From Pseudoxanthomonas indica (lineage in GTDB: Bacteria; Pseudomonadota; Gammaproteobacteria; Xanthomonadales; Xanthomonadaceae), in contig NZ_FUZV01000001.1 in the NCBI RefSeq assembly GCF_900167565.1, positions 1,302,001 to 1,366,000 on the forward strand: a DNA stretch of 64,000 nt. The letters run 5' to 3'. A model generated the notes under the pieces. It saw only the letters and a program-made list of their open reading frames with translations, searched no databases and was not told where the DNA came from. This document shows, piece by piece, positions 7,854-19,552 of the stretch (position 1 is the stretch's first letter; every line of letters begins with the position of its first letter). The position numbers were made by a program, and so were the translations under genes.

Positions 7854-8184
7854 CAAAGTCAAAGCAAGGACGCGGAACAAAACAGCTCCCGTCCTTCGCC
7901 TTGTTTCGCGCGCACCAGCGCGCCAGTTCGATCCAGCAACGCGTGATTTCATACTTCGGCGCATACGGTTTTTGCGTGCTCGGTACGGGCTAGCTTGGCT
8001 GGTGGATCAGCACCAGCTTTCGTCCGCATCGGTAGAGCACCTCGCTGACCACGCCCTGGCTGCCTTGCTCGCTGACCTAGAACGCGGGCGTGAGTGCATT
8101 GCTGATGGAATCTCCTTTGACGATGCCGAACTGGTGCGCGACACGTCGAGCCACATCATTGAGCCCTTCACGGAGTTGCCATGA
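7807..8184 (+). CDS. Immunity-operon protein, unknown (125 aa)
   Basis: A basic, helical 125-residue protein that starts inside the end of the repressor gene (ATG at 7807, with AAAGGGGG just upstream) and overlaps the next gene by 4 bases. It opens METHKGLEALAQALADKVKA and has an Arg-rich segment RDFILRRIRFLRARYG (about 42-57) followed by a second helix pair. It is expressed with the repressor in the lysogen by its position. It could be a DNA-binding cofactor or an exclusion protein; no motif decides. Confidence 0.55.
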   Translation: METHKGLEALAQALADKVKARTRNKTAPVLRLVSRAPARQFDPATRDFILRRIRFLRARYGLAWLVDQHQLSSASVEHLADHALAALLADLERGRECIADGISFDDAELVRDTSSHIIEPFTELP

Positions 8185-8846
8185 AACCTGCTAGCTTCGC
8201 TGTTCTTTTGATCGCTTTTGGTGTTGCTGGCTGCAGTGAACCTGCCTCACCCGAACGAAAAGCCGAGGCAACGAGAAAGGCGACAACCGAGTCCAAGCCG
8301 CGCGATCCGCGGAAAGCAATCAGTGAGTACGTTTTCGAGCCGTACGACAAACGGGAATACCCGAAGCTGTCAAAAAAGCTCGGCAGCGCCTGGCCGCGCA
8401 TCCAGCCACTACGTGAAGCGGCCGCGCTGAGATTTGTTAAGTCCGGCCGATGCGACTTTGTCGAACTAGCGGAAGTGTCAGAGAGCCGCTCGACGAAGCA
8501 GAACATTACCGTGTTTGTGGATTGTCGAAATCGCGAACGACTGTATGTCTCTGAGGATGACCTGAACGAGAACAGGGCACTTTCCCCCCAGTCCGATCGC
8601 GTCATAAGCCAAAGCGTCGCTATCGACGCCTGTGCTGACGCAGCCAAGTCCAGAGCGACTTTCCCTTCCTTGGTCAACGCGCACACATGGGCTGGCGCCC
8701 GCTTCTCATCCGACAAAACCACCGGCGGCGCGCGCGTGCTCTTGGATTTTGAGGCGACCAACGCCTTGGGCGTTGAGTTGCCATACACAGCGAATTGCAC
8801 CTTCCCGGTGGGTGGCCCGGCGGAAATAACAATCATCGCGCGATAA
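8181..8846 (+). CDS. Prophage-encoded lipoprotein
   Basis: A 221-residue protein with a classic lipoprotein signal: MKPASFAVLLIAFGVAGC, with the lipobox VAGC placing the acylated Cys at residue 18. A charged Lys/Glu/Arg linker (about 22-45) follows, then a globular domain with four cysteines (CDFVEL about 93, DCRNRE about 114, ACADA about 154, NCTFP about 211) that could pair in the periplasm. It is the last gene of the immunity operon, overlapping its neighbour by 4 bases, so it should be made in the lysogen. A surface lipoprotein there suggests lysogenic conversion, such as superinfection exclusion. Function is unknown. Confidence 0.7.
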   Translation: MKPASFAVLLIAFGVAGCSEPASPERKAEATRKATTESKPRDPRKAISEYVFEPYDKREYPKLSKKLGSAWPRIQPLREAAALRFVKSGRCDFVELAEVSESRSTKQNITVFVDCRNRERLYVSEDDLNENRALSPQSDRVISQSVAIDACADAAKSRATFPSLVNAHTWAGARFSSDKTTGGARVLLDFEATNALGVELPYTANCTFPVGGPAEITIIAR

Positions 8847-10654: not shown

Positions 10655-10957
10655 ATGATGAAGCCGGAAAACACCACACCACTGCAGCGCCACGCGCTCC
10701 TCGCTGCGCTGGGCGCACCGGACCACCGGTTCAATCGCACGCGCGCCGGCTACGTGCCGGCCGGGGCGACGTCCGCGCCGGCGTTCACCTTTCGCCTGAT
10801 GCGCATGCTCGAAGCCGGCTACCTGGTCACCTTCGACAGCACGGAGTTCCCCACCAGCGCCACGCTGACGCTCCAGGGCGTGTGTCTGGCCGAAACCCTG
10901 CGCGCCATAGCCGAAGCCAAGTCAACCCGTCGCCAGACGGCGGGAGGCGTGCGATGA
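10655..10957 (+). CDS. Small winged-helix-like phage protein
   Basis: A 100-residue protein starting at an ATG at 10655 (a second ATG follows at once). LQRHALLAALGAPDHRFNRT (about 10-29), FTFRLMRMLEAGYLVTF (about 45-61) and a beta pair (SATLTLQGVCLAETLR) look like a winged helix: helix, helix, wing. The next gene overlaps by 4 bases. A DNA-binding role is plausible but not proved. Confidence 0.5.
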   Translation: MMKPENTTPLQRHALLAALGAPDHRFNRTRAGYVPAGATSAPAFTFRLMRMLEAGYLVTFDSTEFPTSATLTLQGVCLAETLRAIAEAKSTRRQTAGGVR

Positions 10958-11568
10958 CCCGCCTGGCGCAGCTCCTGTTCGCCTACCTGGTCACCCACGT
11001 TGCCGGACGCCGCCCGCCCAACTTCGTGGTGGGCGCCGACAGCGACAACGGTGCTTACCTGATGCGCTGGTTCCTGACACCCTGGCGCGATTGGCAACAT
11101 CGCCTGGGCAAGCGTGCCGACGCGAACCCCACCTGGTGGAACCGGGCGACTGCACGCATGGCGCGGTGGCTTCCCAACCTCTACCTGCACAAGTTCCTGC
11201 GCGACGACGATGACCGTGCCCTGCACGATCACCCCAGCTGGGCAGTGAGCTTCATCCTGCGCAACGGCTACACCGAGCACACCATCCGCGAGGGTGGCAT
11301 CCACAAGCGACGCTTCTATGGGCCCGGGAGCCTGCGCTTCCTGCCGACCACACACGCGCACCGCATCGAGTTGTTGCGCGAGATTGTCGACAACGGTGAC
11401 CCGATCGTGCGGAAGGACGACCCCGCAGTGCCGTGCTGGTCGCTGTTCCTGTTCGGACCCACCGTGCGCGAATGGGGCTTCCACTGCCCTGAGCGCGGGT
11501 GGGTGCACTGGAAGGATTTCACTGCCGCCGGCAAGCCGGGTGAGATTGGTCCGGGGTGCGACGCATGA
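10954..11568 (+). CDS. Cupin-like phage protein
   Basis: A 204-residue protein with a cupin-type core: LYLHKFLRDDDDRALHDHPS (about 71-90), where HDH supplies metal-binding histidines, then a beta strand series ending in THAHRIEL (about 131-138), a plausible second cupin motif, and WGFHCPERGWVHWKDF near the C-terminus. Similar short cupins occur in early regions of many tailed phages of GC-rich hosts, where no enzyme activity has been assigned. The N-terminal 40 residues are hydrophobic enough to sit near a membrane. It overlaps both neighbours (ATGA at 10954 and 11565). Confidence 0.65.
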   Translation: MTRLAQLLFAYLVTHVAGRRPPNFVVGADSDNGAYLMRWFLTPWRDWQHRLGKRADANPTWWNRATARMARWLPNLYLHKFLRDDDDRALHDHPSWAVSFILRNGYTEHTIREGGIHKRRFYGPGSLRFLPTTHAHRIELLREIVDNGDPIVRKDDPAVPCWSLFLFGPTVREWGFHCPERGWVHWKDFTAAGKPGEIGPGCDA

Positions 11569-12164
11569 AAGTGGTGACTAAGTCGCGCGCCCGGGCCGTG
11601 CGCCAGTTTGTAGCGCGCCATCCCAACGGAGTGACCGTCGCGCAGATCATTCAGGGCGTTGACCGCGCGTGCACCGCCAGCGCGATGTCCGCCACGCTCG
11701 CGCCGATTGTGGCGCGCGGCCAGGTGCGTCGGAAGGTGCGCGGCGGCGAGGTTCACTTCCTGCCGACCAAGTCGACGGTGGCCGCACCGACGCCGGCGGC
11801 GACGCAGGCCGTTCCTCCCAAGCCCATCGCCAAGGCAGTACCGGCGTCCCTTGGGGCCAAGCCCTCACCGATGGCGCAACACCAGTCCGCTGATCCGCTG
11901 CGCGTGGATACCGCGCTGGCCTCGCGAGTCGCCGGCCGCGTGAACCTGAGCAGCCTGTATCTCAAGCCCAAGCATCGCCAACTGGACCGCACAGAAATCA
12001 CTGCGGACGTGGAGCGCTTCATCGCTTCGGGCGGCGCCATCCAGAAGCTCGATCACGGCGACACCGCCGAATCCATCAAAGCACGCGAAGAACGCTTCCG
12101 TGCCGAGCAGCGGCAGCGCTCGGCGATTCCGCCGCACCGCCGCGCCAAGTCTTCCAACACCTGA
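11565..12164 (+). CDS. DNA-binding phage protein, winged helix plus linker
   Basis: A 199-residue protein. Residues 1-65 form a winged-helix-like unit (SRARAVRQFVARHPNGVTVA, then ASAMSATLAPIVARGQVRRK, then a wing GGEVHFLPT). A Pro/Ala-rich linker follows (about 70-110), and then a C-terminal basic domain (YLKPKHRQLDRTEITADVER onward, ending in QRQRSAIPPHRRAKS). It resembles a regulator or replication accessory factor. Its start overlaps the cupin-like gene's stop by 4 bases, inside the rightward early operon. Confidence 0.55.
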   Translation: MKVVTKSRARAVRQFVARHPNGVTVAQIIQGVDRACTASAMSATLAPIVARGQVRRKVRGGEVHFLPTKSTVAAPTPAATQAVPPKPIAKAVPASLGAKPSPMAQHQSADPLRVDTALASRVAGRVNLSSLYLKPKHRQLDRTEITADVERFIASGGAIQKLDHGDTAESIKAREERFRAEQRQRSAIPPHRRAKSSNT

Positions 12165-12176
12165 CGGAGCACCACC

Positions 12177-12395
12177 ATGTTCAATCACCGCGAGCCCGAC
12201 CTGAGCGGGCCTGACTTTCTCGACTCTGTTGCCGACGCCGAAGAGGCCTTGGGCAACCAGCGCAACGCGGCCGAGTACCGCAAGCGCGCGCGCCAGTGGC
12301 AGCAAGACATCGATGCCGCCTCCGCTGCACCCATTCCCACCCCGGTGCGCGCCACGCGGCGCGCCATCGCCATGCGGCCGGCTGGCCGCGCTTAA
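12177..12395 (+). CDS. Small phage protein, unknown (72 aa)
   Basis: A 72-residue protein preceded by ACGGAGCACC, a good ribosome-binding site. The first half is a coil-forming helix (FLDSVADAEEALGNQRNAAE, about 14-33; YRKRARQWQQDIDAA) and the end is Arg/Pro-rich. It sits immediately before the first DGR target gene. Its function is unknown. Confidence 0.5.
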   Translation: MFNHREPDLSGPDFLDSVADAEEALGNQRNAAEYRKRARQWQQDIDAASAAPIPTPVRATRRAIAMRPAGRA

Positions 12396-12405
12396 GGAGC
12401 AACCC

Positions 12406-13038
12406 ATGACCCAGCTTTCCGAACTGAGTGTGCGCATCACCCATCGCTACGAGGCCAATGGCTTGGCCACCGAACGCACCATCGACATCGAGACGGTTCC
12501 GGCGCGGTTCGTCGGCCAGCCGGCCGAAGCGGCGCAAGCAGTGGCGACGGACGCAGTGGCCGGCCAAGTGGTCACTGGTCTGCGGAGCGCCGACCCGGCA
12601 CTCACGGACCGCTTCACCAAGGTCTTGGCCAACGGCGCGCATTGCGTTGCCGGAGATACCGGCACGGACCATGTTGCGGTCCTGGACAACGCCACCGGCC
12701 TGATGTGGTCCGTCGAATCCCTGGGCGACGCAGACGGCGACGGCATTGAACAGAAGGCCTGCATCGACCGCTGCGCGGAATTGCGTTTGCTCGGCTTCGA
12801 CGATTGGCGCCTGCCCACGCGCGCCGAGCTGGCGGGCCTGGTTGATGACACGCGCCACGAGCCGGCCATCGACACCAACGCATTCCCGCGCGTGAAGCCG
12901 AACTGGCATTGGACCAGCACGCCTTGCGCCTGGTCTTCGGCGTCCGCGTGGTGCGTCTACTTCGACGGCGGCAGCGTCTACAGCGGCCTCCGCGGCGGCG
13001 ACGGGTTCGCGTTGGCCGTGCGCCGCGCCGGTCAGTAA
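12406..13038 (+). CDS. DGR target protein 1 (DUF1566 domain)
   Basis: First of three variable proteins of the diversity-generating retroelement. It has 210 residues: an N-terminal region (1-85) not seen in the other two targets, then a DUF1566 domain with the hallmark VLDNATGLMW (about 92-101), FDDWRLPTRAEL (131-142) and HWTSTP (about 168-173). The last 35 residues (175-209) are the variable repeat. DUF1566 is thought to share the C-type-lectin-like fold used by many DGR targets, in which the variable residues form a ligand-binding face. There is no signal peptide or membrane segment, so it is probably cytoplasmic or virion-borne. AAGGAG lies 8 bases before the ATG at 12406. Confidence 0.88.
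   Translation: MTQLSELSVRITHRYEANGLATERTIDIETVPARFVGQPAEAAQAVATDAVAGQVVTGLRSADPALTDRFTKVLANGAHCVAGDTGTDHVAVLDNATGLMWSVESLGDADGDGIEQKACIDRCAELRLLGFDDWRLPTRAELAGLVDDTRHEPAIDTNAFPRVKPNWHWTSTPCAWSSASAWCVYFDGGSVYSGLRGGDGFALAVRRAGQ
12927..13032 (+). repeat. DGR variable repeat VR1
   Basis: 106 bp that align without gaps to the template repeat at 14475-14580. Sixteen positions differ, all of them adenines in the template. The flanks (25 bp at the 5' side, 30 bp at the 3' side) are identical. The repeat ends two codons before the stop of target gene 1. Confidence 0.95.
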
Positions 13039-13072
13039 TCGGCTCTTTGCCACCCCATCCAGGAAAACACCG

Positions 13073-13480
13073 ATGACCACCAACACCTCTCGTTTCACCT
13101 CGACGCAGGCGGCTGACGGCACTGTCGAAACCAACATCGATTCCACGACTGGCCTGCAGTGGGCTGCGAAACCTCTGCCCGAGCGCGTCACGCACCAGCA
13201 GGCCATCGACCAGTGCGCCGCGCTGGACCTGGCGGGCTACAGCGACTGGCGCCTGCCCACGCGTGCCGAGCTTCTCACGCTCGTTGACCTGACTCGCTAC
13301 GACCCCGCCATCGATGTCGAAGCCTTCCCGGAAATCAAAGGAGGCTGGTTCTGGAGTAGCGACCTTACCGCCTGGTCTTCGGCGTCCGCGTGGTGCGTCG
13401 GCTTCAGCTACGGCGGCGTCAGCTACGACCGCCGCTCCAGCCTCGGGTTCGCGTTGGCCGTGCGCCGCGCCGGTCAGTAG
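13073..13480 (+). CDS. DGR target protein 2 (DUF1566 domain)
   Basis: A 135-residue protein that is almost only a DUF1566 domain: DSTTGLQW (about 23-30), YSDWRLPTRAELLTLVD (56-72), RYDPAID (75-81), GGWFWSS (90-96), then the variable segment (100-134). It shares WRLPTRAEL and the whole C-terminus with target 1 but lacks the long N-terminal region. An AGGAAAA site precedes the ATG at 13073. The gene begins only 34 bp after target 1. No secretion signal is present. Binding partner unknown. Confidence 0.88.
   Translation: MTTNTSRFTSTQAADGTVETNIDSTTGLQWAAKPLPERVTHQQAIDQCAALDLAGYSDWRLPTRAELLTLVDLTRYDPAIDVEAFPEIKGGWFWSSDLTAWSSASAWCVGFSYGGVSYDRRSSLGFALAVRRAGQ
13369..13474 (+). repeat. DGR variable repeat VR2
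   Basis: 106 bp, gap-free alignment to the template repeat. Sixteen template adenines are changed and no other position differs. The segment just beyond the repeat (CAGTAGTCGGCTCTTTG) closely matches the one after VR1, but not the one after the template, and may be part of the homing-initiation signal. Confidence 0.95.
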
Positions 13481-13517
13481 TCGGCTCTTTGTCCCCTTCA
13501 ATTTCAGGAGAAACCGC

Positions 13518-13943
13518 ATGAAACAAATCACACTCGTCAAGCTGGATGCGCAGGGCAACGAACTGCCTGCCGAAGCGGCCGACTGGGTCGCGGTGCGTGT
13601 GCTCGAGCATGGCCTCATTTTCACCGCCACGCACATCAACGCCGAGCAGGCCAGTCAGGAAGCCCTGCAGGAGCAGGTGAAAGAGCTGGACCTGCTGGGC
13701 GCGAAGGATTGGGACCTGCCGACCATCGAAGAGCTGCAGCTGCTGGTCGACCGAAGCCGCTACGACCCTGCCATCAATACCGATTTCTTCCGCAACATCG
13801 AGAGCGATTGGTACTGGAGCAAGACGCCGGCCGCCTGGTCTTCGGCGTCCGCGTGGTGCGTCAGCTTCAGCTACGGCGGCGTCGACGACTTCCACCGCTA
13901 CGGCGGCGGGTTCGCGTTGGCCGTGCGCCGCGCCGGTCAGTAA
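13518..13943 (+). CDS. DGR target protein 3 (DUF1566 domain)
   Basis: A 141-residue target with a diverged DUF1566 domain: AKDWDLPTIEELQLLVDRS replaces the WRLPTRAEL motif, RYDPAINTDFF and WYWSKTP follow, and the last 35 residues are the variable repeat. The N-terminal 50 residues (MKQITLVKLDAQGNELPAEA onward) differ from the other two targets, so each target has its own head on a shared variable tail. AGGAG at 13506-13510 sets the start at 13518. No signal peptide is present. Avd follows 26 bp downstream. Confidence 0.88.
   Translation: MKQITLVKLDAQGNELPAEAADWVAVRVLEHGLIFTATHINAEQASQEALQEQVKELDLLGAKDWDLPTIEELQLLVDRSRYDPAINTDFFRNIESDWYWSKTPAAWSSASAWCVSFSYGGVDDFHRYGGGFALAVRRAGQ
13832..13937 (+). 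repeat. DGR variable repeat VR3
   Basis: 106 bp, gap-free alignment to the template repeat. Fifteen template adenines are changed and nothing else. Beyond it, CGGTCAG (13934-13940) and CTGACCG (13963-13969) form a 7-bp inverted repeat spanning the stop codon. DGR variable repeats often have a hairpin or cruciform just downstream that aids homing. I see no equally clear pair after VR1 or VR2. Confidence 0.95.
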
Positions 13944-13969
13944 TTGGTCTCTCTGAGCTCGCCTGACCG

Positions 13970-14413
13970 ATGACATCACGTTTCCAGCCACCGCCCATCA
14001 TCAAGGCCGCTGAACGCCTGCTCGTGGACATAGAACAGGCGGTACGGGCGTTCCCGCGCTACCACCGTTACCAGATAGGCAAGAACCTGCGCGAGCACGC
14101 CATGACGGTTTCGCACAGGGCCGGGCGTGCATGGCGCGACCGCGCGCACCAGCGGCGCTGGGTGGAGCAGTTGGTGTGGGACATCGATGAGCTCAAGCAA
14201 TACCTGCAGACCGCCAAGCTGCTGCAGGCCTTCCGTAGCTTTCGCCAGTTCGAGCACCTGGCACGGCAGGCCGAGCAGTTGGGCGCACAGGCTGGCGGCT
14301 GGCGCCGTCAGCTGAATTCCCCTCCTGCCCAGAATGCGGAAGGCCGTCGTGCCGTACCGCAGCGAGGCCAGAAACTGAGTACCTGTACCGCCTCTGCGGA
14401 GGCCAATCCATGA
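13970..14413 (+). CDS. avd: DGR accessory variability determinant (Avd-like)
   Basis: Avd proteins are small basic four-helix bundles that form a pentamer, bind the reverse transcriptase and the template RNA, and are required for homing. This 147-residue protein lies between the last variable repeat and the template repeat, the usual Avd position. It is helical and basic: IIKAAERLLVDIEQAVRAFP (9-28), YQIGKNLREHAMTVSHRAGR (34-53), WVEQLVWDIDELKQYLQTAK (64-83), LLQAFRSFRQFEHLARQAEQ (84-103). Those four helices match the family layout; the last 35 residues are an unstructured tail. The call rests on position and helix pattern, because Avd sequences diverge strongly. Confidence 0.85.
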   Translation: MTSRFQPPPIIKAAERLLVDIEQAVRAFPRYHRYQIGKNLREHAMTVSHRAGRAWRDRAHQRRWVEQLVWDIDELKQYLQTAKLLQAFRSFRQFEHLARQAEQLGAQAGGWRRQLNSPPAQNAEGRRAVPQRGQKLSTCTASAEANP

Positions 14414-14474
14414 CGACGCCTCGCTACCCACATCCGGGCTGCGCGGCTTGGTCGCAAGTGTATGGGGAGGCGGC

Positions 14475-14580
14475 CGCCTGGTCTTCGGCGTCCGCGTGGT
14501 ACGTCAACTTCAACAACGGCAACGTCAACAACAACCACCGCAACAACAACGGGTTCGCGTTGGCCGTGCGCCGCGCCGGT
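14475..14580 (+). ncRNA. DGR template repeat (TR)
   Basis: The 106-bp template copied by the reverse transcriptase. All 22 of its adenines lie in the central 51 bp: ten AAC codons plus one TAC and one CAC in the target frame. The first 25 and last 30 bases have no adenine and match all three variable repeats exactly. AAC becomes NNC after adenine mutagenesis, so no stop codon can arise. It starts 62 bp after the Avd stop and ends 18 bp before the reverse transcriptase ATG, the BPP-1-like order VR, avd, TR, RT. The functional RNA probably extends into both neighbours. Confidence 0.95.
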
Positions 14581-14598
14581 GAGTTTCAGGGGGAATGG

Positions 14599-15768
14599 AT
14601 GCCCGTCACGTTCCAGGCGCTCTACCACGCCTGGCGACGTGCCCGGCGACAGAAAGTGCCCAGTCAGAACCAGCTCCGGTTCGACACGCACTGGATGGAC
14701 GAATTACTCCAGTTGGAGCGCAGCATCACCGCCGGCACCTGGTCACCGAGGCCGGCAACCTGTTTCATCGCCCAACGACCGAAGGCGCGCGAGATACATG
14801 CGCCGGACTTTGCGGACCGTGTGGTGCACCACTGGCTGGTGCCGCAGCTCGAAGGCGCCTTTGAGCGTGGCTTCATCCATGACTCCTACGCCAACCGTCG
14901 CGGCAAGGGCAGCCACGCCGCTGTGCGGCGAGCGCAGGCGTTCGCCCGCCAGGTCCATAGCGGCCAGGGCGGTGGCTGGTTCCTGCAGCTGGATGTGCAC
15001 AACTTCTTCAACAGCATCCATCGACCGACCTTGTGGGGCCTGCTCAAGCCGCGCTTGCTGCGCGCAGGCGCGCACATCCAGTTTCTGCAGGTCACGCACG
15101 CTCTGCTGCGCAAGGATCCGGTCGCGCCTGGCGTGCGGGTGCGTGCCACGGCCGAGGAACAGGCACTCGTGCCACCCCACAAGCGGCTCGCCAACGCGGC
15201 GCCGGGATGCGGCTTGCCCATCGGCAACCTCTCGTCCCAGTTCTTCGCGAACGTCTACCTGGATGCGCTGGATCAGTTCGTCAAGCACGAGCTCAAGGCC
15301 AAGCGCTATGTGCGCTACGTGGACGACTTCGTGCTGTTCCACCATGACCGCGACCAGCTCGAGCGCTGGCAGGTCGCAATCGAGGCGTTCCTGTCCCAAC
15401 GGCTCCGACTCTCGTTGAAGGCCGACGTGCGCCTGCGGCCACTGACAGCCGGGTTGGACTTCCTCGGCTACGTCATCCGGCCCACGCACACGTTGGTGAG
15501 GCCACGCGTGGTCAGCCATGCGCGCCAGGCGCTGGCCGCGTGGGAGAGCGCCCACGTGTCGCCGCGAAGCATCCGCGCCACCCCGTACGCCCTCGAAGCA
15601 CTGCGCAGCACCTTGGCCAGCTACCAAGGCCACTTTCGACACGCCAACAGCCACCGCCTGCAGCGCCTGCTGCATCGGCGGTTCCCGTGGATCCGCAACG
15701 CCTCTACCCCACGTCGATTTCCCGTTCGACTGGAAGGTCGGCGCATCACTCTCAGGAGTTTTTCATGA
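14599..15768 (+). CDS. DGR reverse transcriptase
   Basis: Copies the template RNA with adenine-directed errors to make the cDNA that replaces a variable repeat. From the ATG at 14599 it has 389 residues, as usual for this class. FLQLDVHNFFNSI (128-140) carries the first catalytic Asp (D132). GLPIGNLSSQFFANVYLD (205-222) contains the (I/L/V)GxxxSQ signature that sets DGR enzymes apart from group II and retron enzymes. RYVDDFVLF (239-247) is the YxDD catalytic box. No maturase or endonuclease domain follows. AGGGGG directly after the template repeat supports this start. The frame is open back to an ATG at 14410, through the template, but that part is probably not translated. The stop overlaps the next ATG. 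Confidence 0.96.
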   Translation: MPVTFQALYHAWRRARRQKVPSQNQLRFDTHWMDELLQLERSITAGTWSPRPATCFIAQRPKAREIHAPDFADRVVHHWLVPQLEGAFERGFIHDSYANRRGKGSHAAVRRAQAFARQVHSGQGGGWFLQLDVHNFFNSIHRPTLWGLLKPRLLRAGAHIQFLQVTHALLRKDPVAPGVRVRATAEEQALVPPHKRLANAAPGCGLPIGNLSSQFFANVYLDALDQFVKHELKAKRYVRYVDDFVLFHHDRDQLERWQVAIEAFLSQRLRLSLKADVRLRPLTAGLDFLGYVIRPTHTLVRPRVVSHARQALAAWESAHVSPRSIRATPYALEALRSTLASYQGHFRHANSHRLQRLLHRRFPWIRNASTPRRFPVRLEGRRITLRSFS

Positions 15769-17783
15769 CCAACTCGCAACTGATTCCCTTGGCGCAGGTG
15801 CGCCTTTCCGACCGCAATGTCCGCCGCACGGGCGACTCCAATGTGGACGAGCTGGCGGCGAGCATCAGCGCCGAAGGTCTGCTCAACAACCTGGTGGTGA
15901 CCGCGGCGAACGATGGCTTCTTTGAGGTCGTCGACGGTGGCCGGCGCCTTCTGGCACTGCAGCAGCTTGATCGCGCCGGGCGGCTGGCAGACACGCTGAA
16001 GAGCGTCATGTGCCTGGTGGTGGATGACGAGCGCGCCGTGGAAGCGGGCTTGACCGCCAACATCATGCGCCAAGCGATGCACCCGGCCGATGAGTTCCTG
16101 GCATTCCGGCAGTTGGCCGAAGAAGGAAACACGGCCGATGAAATTGCCGAGCGCTTTGGCAAGCCTGTCCGGCACATCCAACAGCGCCTGAAGCTGGCCA
16201 ACGTCAAACCCGACCTGTTCGAGGTCTACCGCGGCGGCGGGATGAACCTGGACCAGTTGATGGCGCTGGCTTCGACCGACAACCATGAGTTGCAGCGCCA
16301 GGCATGGGCGACCGCGCGCGGTGACTACGAGCGCGACGCACGATCGCTGCGCAACTTCATTTATCGCGAAACGGTCTCCAGCGAGAACCCGATGGCGCAG
16401 TTGGTGACGCTGGAGGCGTACGAGGAAGCCGGCGGCAAGGTCAGGCGAGACCTGTTCTCCGATACCGCCTACCTGGCTGACCTGAGCCTGCTGGAAAGCC
16501 TGGCCATGCAGAAGCTGGAAGCCATCGCGAGCGAACTTCGCAACGCCGGATGGTCTTGGGCCGAGGCTCGCTTGAGCATGGACTACAGCGAGCAGAGCGC
16601 ATATGGCCAGCACCCGCGCTGCTGGACAGCCAATATCGAAAACTTCGCTTCGGACGCCGATGCGGCGCGCTTTGCCGAAATCGAGTTGCAGGCATCGGAG
16701 CTCGAAAACCAGATACAGGATCTGGACGACGAAGATCCGCGCGTGGACGCTCTCAACGAGCAGTGGCGGGAACTGGACGTCGAGATGGATGCCATCAACG
16801 ATCGCAAGGTGACCACCTACCCCGCCGACATCATGGCCACTACCGGCGTGTTGGTGTTCCTGGACCGCAGCGGCCTCCAGGTCCTGCATGCCCGGCTCAA
16901 GCCGAACCAGAAGGCGACCAAGAGCGCCGGCGCCACCGGCAAAGCTGCCAAGTCCGAAGCCCCGACCGAGCTGAGCGCCGCCGTACTGGAAACGCTGTCG
17001 GCACACCGCAGCGAGGTCGCGCGATATCACTTGGCGCAAGATCCGGTCCTGGCGCAATGCATTCTCATCCAGCGACTGCTGCAGCATCACTGGCAGGGCG
17101 TGTACGAACGCAATGGCCTGCGCCTGGACGTGGATCGCGTCACCGACGCCAGCAAGGTGGCGGAGGTCCACCCTGCAATTCGCGCCGCGATCGCGACGGC
17201 CGCGCAGGTCATCAAGACGATTCCCCAGAAGGACACCCTCGACTACCTGCTCAAGCAGACCGAGAAGTGGCGGATGGAAGTGCAGGCCATTCTGGTGGCC
17301 ATGAGTTTCGACGGGATTTCGCAGTCGGCCGGCGGGCATGATGGCGTCGCCGCGATCCATCGCGTTGTCGGGTTCGACATGAGTAGCCATTGGACGCCGG
17401 TCACCGACAATTTCGTGGGTCGCATCCCACCGAAGCTCCTGGTGGAGGCAATCACCGAAGCGAAGGGAAAAGAAGTCGCGGCACAGCTGAAGGATCTGAA
17501 GCGCGCTGAGCGAGTAGCGTTGGGCGGAAAGTTGCTGTCCGGTACCGGCTGGCTGCCCGCGGCGCTGCGCGGGCCCGGCTACGGCCGCGTCGCCGACGCG
17601 GGCCGAGCGGCGAGCCCGCCAGCGGCCGCCAAGAAGGCCGGCAAGGTCAAGCCTGCCGCCAAGCCGGCGACCAAGGGCAAGAGCGCGCCGAAGAAAAAGG
17701 GCGCCAGCGGCGCGGGCAAAAAGTCCGCGTCGGCAGCCGTCAAGAAGGCTCCCAAGAAAGTCACGAAGAAGGGAGGCAAGTAA
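15765..17783 (+). CDS. ParB-like protein with histone-H1-like tail
   Basis: A 672-residue protein with a ParB/Spo0J N-terminal domain: NVDELAASISAEGLLNNLVV (about 26-45) and VVDGGRRLLALQQL (55-68), where the usual GERR(W/Y)RA box is GGRRLLA. An HTH follows (NTADEIAERFGKPVRHIQQR, about 126-145), then a large middle region with coiled coils (about 300-345). The last 60 residues are Lys/Ala/Pro-rich repeats like histone H1 or AlgP tails, expected to bind DNA. AGGAG at 15754-15758 and an ATGA overlap with the reverse transcriptase stop show co-expression. Such proteins are typical of plasmids and mobile elements. Its role beside a DGR is unknown. Confidence 0.8.
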   Translation: MTNSQLIPLAQVRLSDRNVRRTGDSNVDELAASISAEGLLNNLVVTAANDGFFEVVDGGRRLLALQQLDRAGRLADTLKSVMCLVVDDERAVEAGLTANIMRQAMHPADEFLAFRQLAEEGNTADEIAERFGKPVRHIQQRLKLANVKPDLFEVYRGGGMNLDQLMALASTDNHELQRQAWATARGDYERDARSLRNFIYRETVSSENPMAQLVTLEAYEEAGGKVRRDLFSDTAYLADLSLLESLAMQKLEAIASELRNAGWSWAEARLSMDYSEQSAYGQHPRCWTANIENFASDADAARFAEIELQASELENQIQDLDDEDPRVDALNEQWRELDVEMDAINDRKVTTYPADIMATTGVLVFLDRSGLQVLHARLKPNQKATKSAGATGKAAKSEAPTELSAAVLETLSAHRSEVARYHLAQDPVLAQCILIQRLLQHHWQGVYERNGLRLDVDRVTDASKVAEVHPAIRAAIATAAQVIKTIPQKDTLDYLLKQTEKWRMEVQAILVAMSFDGISQSAGGHDGVAAIHRVVGFDMSSHWTPVTDNFVGRIPPKLLVEAITEAKGKEVAAQLKDLKRAERVALGGKLLSGTGWLPAALRGPGYGRVADAGRAASPPAAAKKAGKVKPAAKPATKGKSAPKKKGASGAGKKSASAAVKKAPKKVTKKGGK

Positions 17784-17786
17784 GCC

Positions 17787-18641
17787 ATGAGCCTGCGTGT
17801 GCCGATCAGCGACGTGCGCCCCGACGCCAAGCAACCTCGTACCTACTTCCGCGAGTCCGCATTGAAGGCGCTGGCCACCTCGATCCAGAAGACCGGCCAG
17901 CGTCAACCTATCACCGTGCGGGCGCTGCGCGCCGGAGCCAAAGTGCCGTACGAGATCATCGACGGCGAGCGCAGATGGCGCGCCTGCAAACTCGCCGGCA
18001 TCACCACCATCCGGGTGGACGTTGAAGATCGCGACCTCGCACGTCACGTCGACCAGCATCTGCTGTCCCTGGCCAGCAACTTCATGCGCGAGGGTCACAC
18101 CCACATGGAGATTTCCGCCGGCGTCCACTACCAAGTCGAGGCCGGGGTCGAAGCCGGGTTGTCGAGGGGGCAGGCCATCAAGGAGTTGGGCGACTCGATC
18201 GGCAAGTCGGATGCCTGGGTATACCAGTACCTGCAGTTGCAGCAACTGTGCGCGGAACTGCAGGAGCGCATGCACCCGGACATGGATGACGAGAAGCGCC
18301 TGCGCTTCACGGAGGCCATCATCCTGGCGCCCTTGGCAAAGGAACAGCAGAAGGCCATCTACCGCGCCCTGCTGCGCTACCCGCCGGGCGCCCGGGCGCA
18401 ACATGCCAAGCGCCTGGTGGCCAAGGCCACGGACTCACCGGTGCAGCGCCGCGCAACGGACGTCAAGGTCAGCACGAGCCGCTTCGTCGCCCGTGTCACC
18501 GCCGAGATCGAGCGCGTGCTCGACTTCAAGCAAAGTGATTTCCGAGCGGCGTTGTCCGCCGTACCGGCGCCGGATCGCCGCGCCTTGCGCGAATCCGTCG
18601 CACTCCTGCTGGCTGCGATTGATCGGGCGGCGCGGACGTAA
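17787..18641 (+). CDS. ParB-family DNA-binding protein
   Basis: A 284-residue second ParB homologue three bases after the first. It has the intact nucleotide-binding box (EIIDGERRWRACKLAG, 56-71) preceded by QPRTYFRESALKALATSIQK and QRQPITVR. An HTH region lies at about 125-150 (SRGQAIKELGDSIGKSDAWV), and the C-terminus is helical. In bona fide ParB proteins this box binds CTP and lets the protein slide from a parS site. No ParA-type ATPase is present, so plasmid-like partitioning is unlikely; regulation or DNA protection is more plausible. The tandem ParB pair is co-transcribed with the DGR. Confidence 0.82.
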   Translation: MSLRVPISDVRPDAKQPRTYFRESALKALATSIQKTGQRQPITVRALRAGAKVPYEIIDGERRWRACKLAGITTIRVDVEDRDLARHVDQHLLSLASNFMREGHTHMEISAGVHYQVEAGVEAGLSRGQAIKELGDSIGKSDAWVYQYLQLQQLCAELQERMHPDMDDEKRLRFTEAIILAPLAKEQQKAIYRALLRYPPGARAQHAKRLVAKATDSPVQRRATDVKVSTSRFVARVTAEIERVLDFKQSDFRAALSAVPAPDRRALRESVALLLAAIDRAART

Positions 18642-19286: not shown

Positions 19287-19552
19287 GTGCTACGCGCTTT
19301 TCCCGTACCACCGCAACTAGTTGACTCAAAAGCAGTTAGCGGAGGTGTCGTCACAGTCCATCATCGGGGCGACGGAGAGGCGAAGGTGTTCCTGCGGGAT
19401 GGGGGCGGAGGCTTGCATGGGCGCCATTGTAAGGCCCACGGAAGAGACGCGTTTCTGCTGTACGCCGAGCCGTGCCGGTGCATCAGGGAGCGTTACGTCC
19501 CCGCGACTGCACTACCGATCAGGAAGCGAGCCGCACTCCCCTGCCCGCCGAA
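19287..19552. other. Prophage-chromosome junction region, no gene seen
   Basis: 266 bp between the PrtN-like gene and the first chromosomal gene. I see no tRNA, integrase or convincing frame. The prophage boundary (att site) probably lies here, but the opposite end is outside the window, so no direct repeat can be shown. A short frame from 19321 (starting LTQKQLAEVSSQS) looks HTH-like for a few residues and then loses any protein character; it may be a gene end cut by integration. Confidence 0.4.

What the first reader, a model, noticed from the sequence alone, without database searches (positions are those of the whole stretch)
12406..15768. Complete diversity-generating retroelement with three tandem targets in a prophage
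Seen directly: three DUF1566 genes, each ending in a 106-bp repeat; an Avd-like helical protein; one 106-bp adenine-loaded template; and a reverse transcriptase with GLPIGNLSSQ and YVDD motifs. Known: this is the DGR architecture first described in Bordetella phage BPP-1 (VR, avd, TR, RT). Three targets served by one template in a compact early operon is an unusual set-up.
Basis: partly seen in the sequence, partly recalled or inferred. Interest (0 to 1): 0.95.

Follow-up and report, generated by a model that had tools for sequence, protein, structure and literature searches.

The report
Self-priming phage gene-mutator with three targets
A virus lying dormant in a bacterial chromosome carries a copy-and-mutate machine that likely rewrites the ends of three of its lectin-like genes from one shared template; the template sits inside the copying enzyme's own open reading frame, and its RNA is predicted to fold back and prime its own copying, a layout unlike the textbook case.

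Summary
The locus is a diversity-generating retroelement (DGR): three Lcl_C (DUF1566) target genes, an avd-like gene, one template repeat (TR) and a DGR-type reverse transcriptase (RT), in a ~44-kb prophage. Of 50 TR-VR mismatches over three 108-bp repeats, 47 are at template adenines. In 14 related phages with one identical TR, 27 VRs differ at 395 of 621 adenine sites and 1 of 2241 other sites.

The TR lies inside the RT frame, open in 85 of 85 family loci. A long-range RNA helix joins the end of avd (14371-14376) to bases just after the TR (14582-14587); one pair changed state at least 13 times on the RT tree and stayed paired in 54 of 54 loci. No conserved pairing follows the helix, whereas BPP-1 relatives keep a 140-186-nt spacer there. 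The helix's 5' strand fits VR ends better than TR ends, as BPP-1's spacer does. I infer that the RNA primes copying from its 5' flank: a permuted DGR RNA. Rfam's RT-15 'sRNA' is the corresponding leader in sister DGRs. Nothing was tested at the bench.

The parts
12406..13038 (+). Target 1, 210 aa, Lcl_C/DUF1566 domain at residues 92-206
   Evidence: Pfam 1.6e-26
12927..13032 (+). VR1
   Evidence: A-specific alignment to TR, 16 of 16 mismatches at template A
13073..13480 (+). Target 2, 135 aa, Lcl_C; predicted C-type-lectin-like fold
   Evidence: Pfam 1.9e-27; model pLDDT 93.4, best solved match 8q4e Lcl C-terminal domain
13368..13474 (+). VR2
   Evidence: 16 of 16 mismatches at template A
13518..13943 (+). 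Target 3, 141 aa, Lcl_C
   Evidence: Pfam 3.3e-20
13828..13937 (+). VR3
   Evidence: 15 of 15 mismatches at template A
13970..14413 (+). avd-like gene, 147 aa; its last 14 codons carry the 5' part of the RNA element
   Evidence: PHROG 3206 2.2e-17
14371..14380 (+). Strand X (GAAACTGAGT): 5' strand of the closing helix and predicted cDNA primer strand; A14378 is the best candidate for the priming base
   Evidence: covariation with 14582-14587; priming is inference
14382..14466 (+). Leader helix 2: 14382-14388 with 14460-14466
   Evidence: all 7 pairs have both-sided changes, 97.9% of cells paired
14390..14403 (+). Small hairpin 14390-14393 with 14400-14403, whose 3' arm overlaps the SD-like GGAGG before the RT start
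   Evidence: 98.6% of cells paired
14418..14447 (+). Leader helix 4: 14418-14424 with 14441-14447
   Evidence: 97.0% of cells paired, 4 of 5 pairs with both-sided changes
14410..15768 (+). RT open frame, 452 aa, starting at an ATG that overlaps the avd stop; RT core from about residue 63
   Evidence: RVT_1 2.7e-13, phrog_1423 1.5e-98, closest to BPP-1 Brt
14471..14580 (+). Template repeat (TR), inside the RT frame
14581..14581 (+). Base that tells TR (G) from VR (C); marks the 3' end of information transfer
   Evidence: differs in 175 of 177 TR-VR pairs of the family, 174 of them G to C
14582..14587 (+). Strand Y (AGTTTC): 3' strand of the closing helix, directly after the TR
19354..19370 (.). 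Candidate right end of the prophage (17-bp direct repeat; other copy 24479 bases left of the window, in a dus gene)

Best explanation
This is a diversity-generating retroelement of a roughly 44-kb prophage in which one adenine-rich template, lying inside the open frame of the reverse transcriptase, likely rewrites the 3' ends of three target genes with a predicted lectin fold by adenine-directed mutagenic copying, and whose RNA is predicted to close on itself around the template and to prime that copying from its own 5' flank.

Shown by the sequence or by calls: the A-specific TR-VR differences; the RT and Avd family matches; the TR inside the RT open frame across the family; the covarying long-range helix 14371-14376 with 14582-14587 and the covarying leader; no conserved pairing 3' of that helix; the near-fixed G-to-C difference at 14581, beyond which the template's next adenine is not copied into VRs.

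Inferred: (1) ribosomes start at 14410 and read through the TR, so the RT carries a TR-encoded, probably unfolded tail. (2) RT and Avd bind the structured leader, and the helix lays strand X against the end of the TR. (3) A base of X, best A14378 opposite U14580, primes cDNA that starts near G14579. (4) G14377 of X mismatches G14581 of the TR but would pair with the C of the VRs, which would favour annealing of the primed cDNA to VRs and help make transfer one-way. (5) The variable lectin-like domains bind some surface ligand, unknown.
For: DGR: 47 of 50 mismatches at template A; RT closest to BPP-1 Brt by profile and fold; Avd; VR turnover over an unchanged TR. Read-through: RT frame open in 85 of 85 loci, other frames in 54 and 6; 37 of 84 loci have no start codon between TR and RT core; leader synonymous:nonsynonymous 494:485 against 42:128 by chance; 6 of 84 loci read the TR in another frame than the targets do and still join the RT frame. 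Helix: 97.9% of cells paired, 143 both-sided changes against 30.9 shuffled; pair 14373:14585 changed state at least 13 times and is standard in 54 of 54; 81 of 84 loci keep six pairs followed by GAGT. Location: the same leader and strand stay at the TR in L102 and L117, where the RT lies 742 nt or more away. Primer: X points into the TR; transfer stops at the helix edge; X fits the VR end better than the TR end in 78 of 86 distinct ends, and so does BPP-1's spacer, which carries its known primer, in 31 of 37 ends of that clade against 11 of 37 for a control stretch.
Against: No cDNA, protein or population data. The window itself has an in-frame ATG at 14599 just after the TR, with an SD-like AGGGGG before it, so its RT could start there; 42 of 84 loci have a GTG or TTG there. 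Openness alone is weak: BPP-1 and 29 of 50 relatives pass it too. The single-sequence fold is not unusually stable (z +0.89). The VR-over-TR fit of X rests on one base in this family (1 in 3 by chance), 8 of 86 ends do not show it, L110-L113 do not show it at that base, and the RT-15 loci I looked at do not either. The end of the match is an A only in this family, L102/L117 and BPP-1.
Confidence: 0.7

Rival explanations
1. An ordinary BPP-1-type DGR: the RT starts after the TR, the recruiting and priming RNA lies 3' of the TR hidden in RT coding sequence, and the frame through the TR is open by chance or because TR and targets share a frame.
For: In-frame ATG with an SD-like stretch at 14599 in the window; BPP-1's frame is open through its TR as well; in 78 of 84 loci the RT frame equals the target frame.
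Against: No conserved pair in 163 columns 3' of the helix; TR to RT distance 140-186 nt in 50 of 50 BPP-1-clade loci with an upstream TR but 3-66 nt here; 37 of 84 loci lack any start codon after the TR; leader under coding constraint.
Confidence: 0.15
2. The leader and closing helix regulate translation (they hide the RT start and SD-like bases) and have no part in copying; the real primer is elsewhere.
For: The hairpin arm overlaps the SD-like GGAGG before the RT start, and avd stop and RT start overlap, as in translational coupling.
Against: In L102 and L117 the RT is 742 nt or more from the TR, yet leader and X remain at the TR; in L235 (RT 319 nt away) the RT-15 leader still abuts the TR; transfer ends at the helix edge.
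Confidence: 0.15
3. A decayed DGR: the locus is a fossil and the VRs are frozen.
For: No expression or population data for this host; the genus search found only two related cassettes, at 75-79% identity, so no near-identical copy to compare.
Against: The ORFs are intact with YVDD present; all VR differences are of the DGR kind; closely related phages show fresh VRs over one identical TR.
Confidence: 0.1

Closest known systems
Bordetella phage BPP-1 DGR (AY029185; Brt structure 8ub7)
   Same: Order target - avd - TR - RT, A-specific mutagenesis, DGR RT (tblastn 31% identity), a covarying helix from the avd end to RNA after the TR in its clade, and a primer-bearing spacer that fits VR better than TR.
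   Different: BPP-1 has one target and 144 nt between TR and brt; here three targets, no 3' spacer, TR inside the RT frame, the structured RNA and predicted primer 5' of the TR.
DGRs of the RT-15 clade (Pseudomonas phage Cruim01, Burkholderia phage Magia and viral contigs) with Rfam RT-15 (RF03018)
   Same: TR directly before the RT core (8-52 nt in 85 of 86), structured RNA 5' of the TR, a helix from the leader to the TR end, several lectin-type targets (Magia annotation).
   Different: Leader sequence differs (no RT-15 match in the window up to E 5); RT 35-46% identical; X does not fit VR better than TR in the loci looked at.
[quoted passage not shown] PMC3521204 section 13 read)
   Same: TR overlapping the RT ORF.
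   Different: Described there as one of several arrangements; [quoted passage not shown]
Stenotrophomonas sp. SKA14 DGR (PMC6642488, passages seen)
   Same: Several DUF1566 targets in the same bacterial family.
   Different: [quoted passage not shown] here one TR and three tandem VRs. RNA structure is not treated in the passages seen.

Membership tests
Diversity-generating retroelement | RT of the DGR type | tested here: met
   best PDB profile hit BPP-1 Brt 3.3e-54, best fold hit 8ub7; SQ-type motif GLPIGNLSSQ (that this is DGR-typical is recalled)
Diversity-generating retroelement | TR and VR that differ almost only at template adenines | tested here: met
   47 of 50 mismatches at A; the rest one shared base
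Diversity-generating retroelement | VR at the 3' end of a target gene, typically with a C-type-lectin fold | tested here: met
   three Lcl_C genes; target 2 model closest to 8q4e, then C-type lectins at weaker E-values
Diversity-generating retroelement | accessory protein Avd | tested here: met
   PHROG 3206 2.2e-17; below the cut-offs of Pfam bAvd and NCBIfam Avd
Diversity-generating retroelement | IMH in VR distinct from IMH* in TR | tested here: met
   TR GTGAGT versus VR GTCAGT: differs in 175 of 177 pairs; that it sets direction is inference
Diversity-generating retroelement | mutagenic retrohoming observed | not testable with these tools
   only sequence evidence
BPP-1-type DGR RNA layout | TR outside the RT gene with a 3' spacer that recruits and primes | tested here: not met
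   TR inside the RT frame, no conserved pair 3' of the helix; BPP-1 clade 140-186 nt
BPP-1-type DGR RNA layout | hairpin/cruciform just downstream of VR | tested here: inconclusive
   VR 3' flanks listed by eye show a shared motif and no obvious long hairpin; not counted
Rfam RT-15 RNA | covariance-model match | tested here: not met
   no match in 11500-16500 up to E 5
Retron, group II intron or DRT | RT closest to those families | tested here: not met
   weaker than Brt by profile and fold; NCBIfam matches all under cut-off; PADLOC best is its general RT model
Prophage (temperate tailed phage) | packaging, head, tail, repressor and integration genes, end repeats | tested here: met
   terminase, head protease, tape measure, tail proteins, repressor, excisionase; Phage_integrase 4.1e-17; 17-bp direct repeat. 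Inducibility not testable

The most novel reading that the evidence does not exclude
A whole branch of DGRs uses a permuted template RNA. The primer strand and the structured docking domain lie 5' of the TR, in the end of avd and the leader, instead of in a 3' spacer; one transcript is at once the RT's mRNA, read through the template, and a self-closing, self-priming template; and a simple code, in which the primer strand matches the IMH of the VR but not that of the TR, makes transfer one-way. The same code read on BPP-1 picks out its known primer region.
Probability: 0.45. Interest if true: 0.8.

Novelty: new variant of a known kind. Interest (0 to 1): 0.6.

Why it matters
If right, the RNA rules that start mutagenic copying are not tied to the BPP-1 layout. 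They can be read from covariation alone, the primer can be predicted in other DGRs, and the direction of transfer comes down to one or a few bases that can be tested. It would also give a role to an Rfam family listed only as an sRNA (RT-15), and it shows residues of two different proteins, Avd and RT, changing together because their codons pair in RNA.

Tried and rejected
Rejected: a retron, group II or DRT origin of the RT. 'TR open in the RT frame' as proof by itself, because BPP-1 and 29 of 50 relatives pass too; I rely on start codons, coding constraint and out-of-frame TRs instead. RT-15 in the window: no match. A transposase between TR and RT in L117: the 176-aa ORF there has only a sub-threshold DUF6772 match, so I call it an ORF of unknown family. 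A global RNAalifold on the RT-15 clade did not return the AAUCUG:CAGAUU helix but a competing pairing; direct counting supports it at its seventh pair (59 of 62 distinct combinations, 35.7 shuffled), weakly at pairs 8 and 9 (54 versus 46.5; 44 versus 35.1), not at pair 6 (31 of 62), and pairs 1-3 are fixed by the search motif; 78 of 85 loci had both motifs. More members of the third group: only two loci, one without a TR. Avd by tblastn in phages: no match. Prevalence in the host family could not be measured: six identical genome-search requests did not complete.

Dropped rows and biases: one search kept the best 80 of 96 relatives. Alignment A2 uses 54 of the 85 family loci, picked by me for diversity. 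Of 93 loci with RT identity of at least 50%, 8 are outside the family count: L044, L070, L073, L081 and L105 (no TR-VR pair found), L102 (TR 742 nt away), L160 and L161 (fragments). The TR-VR finder penalises non-A mismatches, so the ratio (2442 of 4097 A sites, 27 of 14851 others) is biased; searches count over fixed spans. One search leaves out L016 (a VR with an in-frame insertion) and the first base of the span. VR counts per locus are lower bounds, since contigs are cut. RNA-tree and substitution counts treat related loci as in the calls; pairs of loci are not independent.
Full report
WHAT IS THERE. The window is base 1302001-1366000 of contig 1 of a 3.96-Mb genome. Across 14475-14582 the three VRs differ from the TR at 50 sites in all; 47 are template adenines and the other three are the same base, G14581, which is C in each VR. 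The pattern occurs nowhere else in the genome, and the RT is the genome's only RVT_1 match at E up to 0.001. Template adenines fall only in codon positions 1 and 2.

CLASS OF THE RT AND TARGETS. The RT profile finds BPP-1 Brt first among solved structures (8ub7, 3.3e-54; next a group II RT, 4.4e-22), and the predicted model does the same by fold (1.7e-23). Target 2 is predicted with pLDDT 93.4 and is closest to the Legionella Lcl C-terminal domain (8q4e, E 4.4e-6, TM 0.61). The ligand is unknown. The targets lie among non-structural genes, away from the tail genes, so a role in host attachment is not shown.

THE PROPHAGE. The element holds a terminase, a head protease, a tape measure and tail proteins, a DnaB-like gene, a repressor, an excisionase/PrtN-like gene and an integrase. 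A 17-bp direct repeat lies at 19354 and at -24479, the latter inside a dihydrouridine synthase (dus) gene next to the integrase. That gives about 43.8 kb. Phage integration in dusA is a known habit (recalled).

RELATIVES AND ACTIVITY. Scans gave 80 viral loci (best 80 of 96) and 71 genome loci. The closest named hosts are Xanthomonas, Lysobacter, Stenotrophomonas, Arenimonas and Rhodanobacter. Fifteen phages with TR+RT DNA 87-96% identical share one identical 107-nt TR. In 14 of them, 27 VRs differ from it at 395 of 621 adenine sites and 1 of 2241 other sites. Divergence at A sites over an unchanged TR is what continued DGR action predicts. The substitution spectrum depends on context (first A of AAC: G 0.36, T 0.27, C 0.12; second A: G 0.35, T 0.13, C 0.03); a G bias for A before C is reported for BPP-1 (PMC12875486, passages). 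VR number: 11 loci with one, 57 with two, 16 with three, 1 with four, of 85; three within 2.2 kb of the TR only in the window and L038.

THE TEMPLATE IS INSIDE THE RT FRAME. The 452-aa frame starts at an ATG that overlaps the avd stop, 61 nt before the TR, and runs through the TR into the RT. In 85 of 85 family loci it is open from 45 nt before the TR, against 54 and 6 of 85 for the other two frames. BPP-1 is open there too, so openness alone is weak. Stronger: 37 of 84 loci have no start codon between TR and RT core, 42 have only GTG or TTG, 5 have ATG; the window is one of the five, with an SD-like AGGGGG before its ATG at 14599. Leader substitutions lean to synonymous ones (494:485 over 256 pairs of loci, against 42:128 by chance). 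Six of 84 loci read the TR in another frame than their targets do and still join the RT frame. The leader and TR-encoded residues are predicted to be unfolded (block means of pLDDT 33-52), so the peptide itself probably matters less than the read-through. TRs that overlap an RT ORF were already listed in DiGReF (PMC3521204, section 13 read).

A HELIX CLOSES THE TEMPLATE. A blind RNAalifold run on 54 loci pairs GAAACU at the end of avd (14371-14376) with AGUUUC directly after the TR (14582-14587) and finds three more helices in the leader. Counted: 97.9% of 1296 cells are standard pairs; 143 cells changed on both sides against 30.9 (sd 6.5) in shuffles, none of 500 shuffles reaching any of the five measures; sliding the partners by 1-3 columns drops pairing to 21.8-46.8%. 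Pair 14373:14585 is AU 19, CG 18, UA 9, UG 5, GC 3, never broken, and its state changed at least 13 times on the RT tree. Both bases are second codon positions, so Lys/Thr/Ile/Arg in Avd goes with Phe/Cys/Tyr/Ser in the RT (read from the codons in A2). Over the 84 of 85 loci with the end motif, 81 keep all six pairs followed by GAGT. No conserved pair exists in 163 columns 3' of the helix. A single-sequence fold is not unusually stable (z +0.89), so the case rests on covariation.

COMPARISON WITH OTHER DGRs. In the BPP-1 clade the TR ends 140-186 nt before the RT in 50 of 50 loci with an upstream TR (68 examined). There, too, a covarying helix joins the avd end to RNA after the TR, but some 70 nt on, next to the primer region. 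In the RT-15 clade the distance is 8-52 nt in 85 of 86 (88 examined). Rfam's RT-15 RNA ends within 5 nt of the TR start in 20 of 20 loci given, out of 88 held, and was found in 6 of the 8 mixed loci given earlier. Its AAUCUG can pair with CAGAUU at the TR end (limits under Tried and rejected). In other loci of the wider clade, helices of 4-7 pairs in the same place were found by eye in 9 of 13: L106-L113 and L116 yes; L119, L140, L147 and L325 no. In L102 and L117 the RT lies 742 nt or more from the TR, yet the leader and X remain at the TR. This ties the helix to the template rather than to RT translation alone. A quick RT tree puts the sampled family (30 rows, support 100) in a clade of 58 rows in which the TR mostly abuts the RT, apart from BPP-1.

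HOW IT LIKELY WORKS. In BPP-1, RNA 3' of the TR recruits RT and Avd, and an internal adenine there primes (PMC12875486, passages). Here the only conserved strand paired to the TR end is X in the 5' flank, and its 3' direction points into the TR, as a primer's must. Transfer stops at the same place: position 14581 differs between TR and VR in 175 of 177 pairs (174 G to C) and the next A is unchanged in 174 of 177, while adenines inside the TR change in about 60%. X also follows a rule that I found on BPP-1. There the spacer AGGTGGTCA, ending at A56, is the exact complement of the VR end TGACCACCT, while the TR has mismatches. In that clade 31 of 37 distinct ends fit the VR better, 5 tie and 1 fits the TR better; a control stretch gives 11, 8 and 18. 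In our family X fits the VR end better by one base in 78 of 86 distinct ends, equally in 4 and worse in 4 (the last 4 were not followed up). In L102 and L117 another base does the same (TR TCAATGAT, VR TCAGTGAT), and in L106-L109 and L116 the VR has C where the TR has A or G opposite a G of X; L110-L113 do not show it at that base, nor do the RT-15 loci looked at. I therefore infer priming from X, with A14378 as best candidate, and a preference of the primed cDNA for VR over TR. This is inference: the fit is one base, and no cDNA was seen.

VERDICT. The finding is real and, as a DGR, ordinary. The listings and passages that I saw in searches do not describe it, but the library lacks the main structural and survey papers, so an earlier description cannot be excluded.

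Noticed in passing
window 19354-19370; left copy at G000:C1 1277521 (L003 15521): 17-bp direct repeat at both candidate prophage ends; the left copy is inside a dus gene (L003 14584-15699) next to a Phage_integrase gene (L003 15480-16775), suggesting integration in a dus gene.
   Followed up: partly
L004, L005, L006, L083, L086, L128 and 20 further RT-15-clade loci given: Rfam RT-15 (RF03018), listed as an sRNA, ends at or within 5 nt of the DGR template repeat in all 20 loci: it looks like the 5' leader of a DGR template RNA.
   Followed up: partly
L073 about 8060-8190: The RT frame reads VR-like residues (GGGVGNLRRDSSG) where the N-rich template should be, and no TR-VR pair was found: the template itself may have been overwritten.
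   Followed up: no
L016 7416-7531: One VR holds an in-frame 3-nt insertion relative to the TR (register shifts from -646 to -643), as if copying or integration slipped.
   Followed up: no
L117 4574-5104: An ORF of 176 aa and unknown family lies between TR and RT, while leader and strand X stay with the TR.
   Followed up: partly
window 15765-18641: Two ParB-like genes directly follow the RT (15765-17783 and 17787-18641), the first overlapping its end by 4 bases.
   Followed up: no
window 10882-11568: A gene matching a phage family annotated as cysteine dioxygenase (phrog_4786) lies upstream of the targets; role unknown.
   Followed up: no
BPP-1 clade, L177 about 2150-2400: A 12-pair covarying helix joins the avd 3' end to the spacer 3' of the TR in 37 thinned loci; I could not check whether the published structure describes it.
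   Followed up: partly
VR 3' flanks of the family, e.g. window 13035-13060: A shared motif (like TAATTGGCCCTTTTGA) follows many VR ends, without an obvious long hairpin of the BPP-1 kind; listed by eye only.
   Followed up: no
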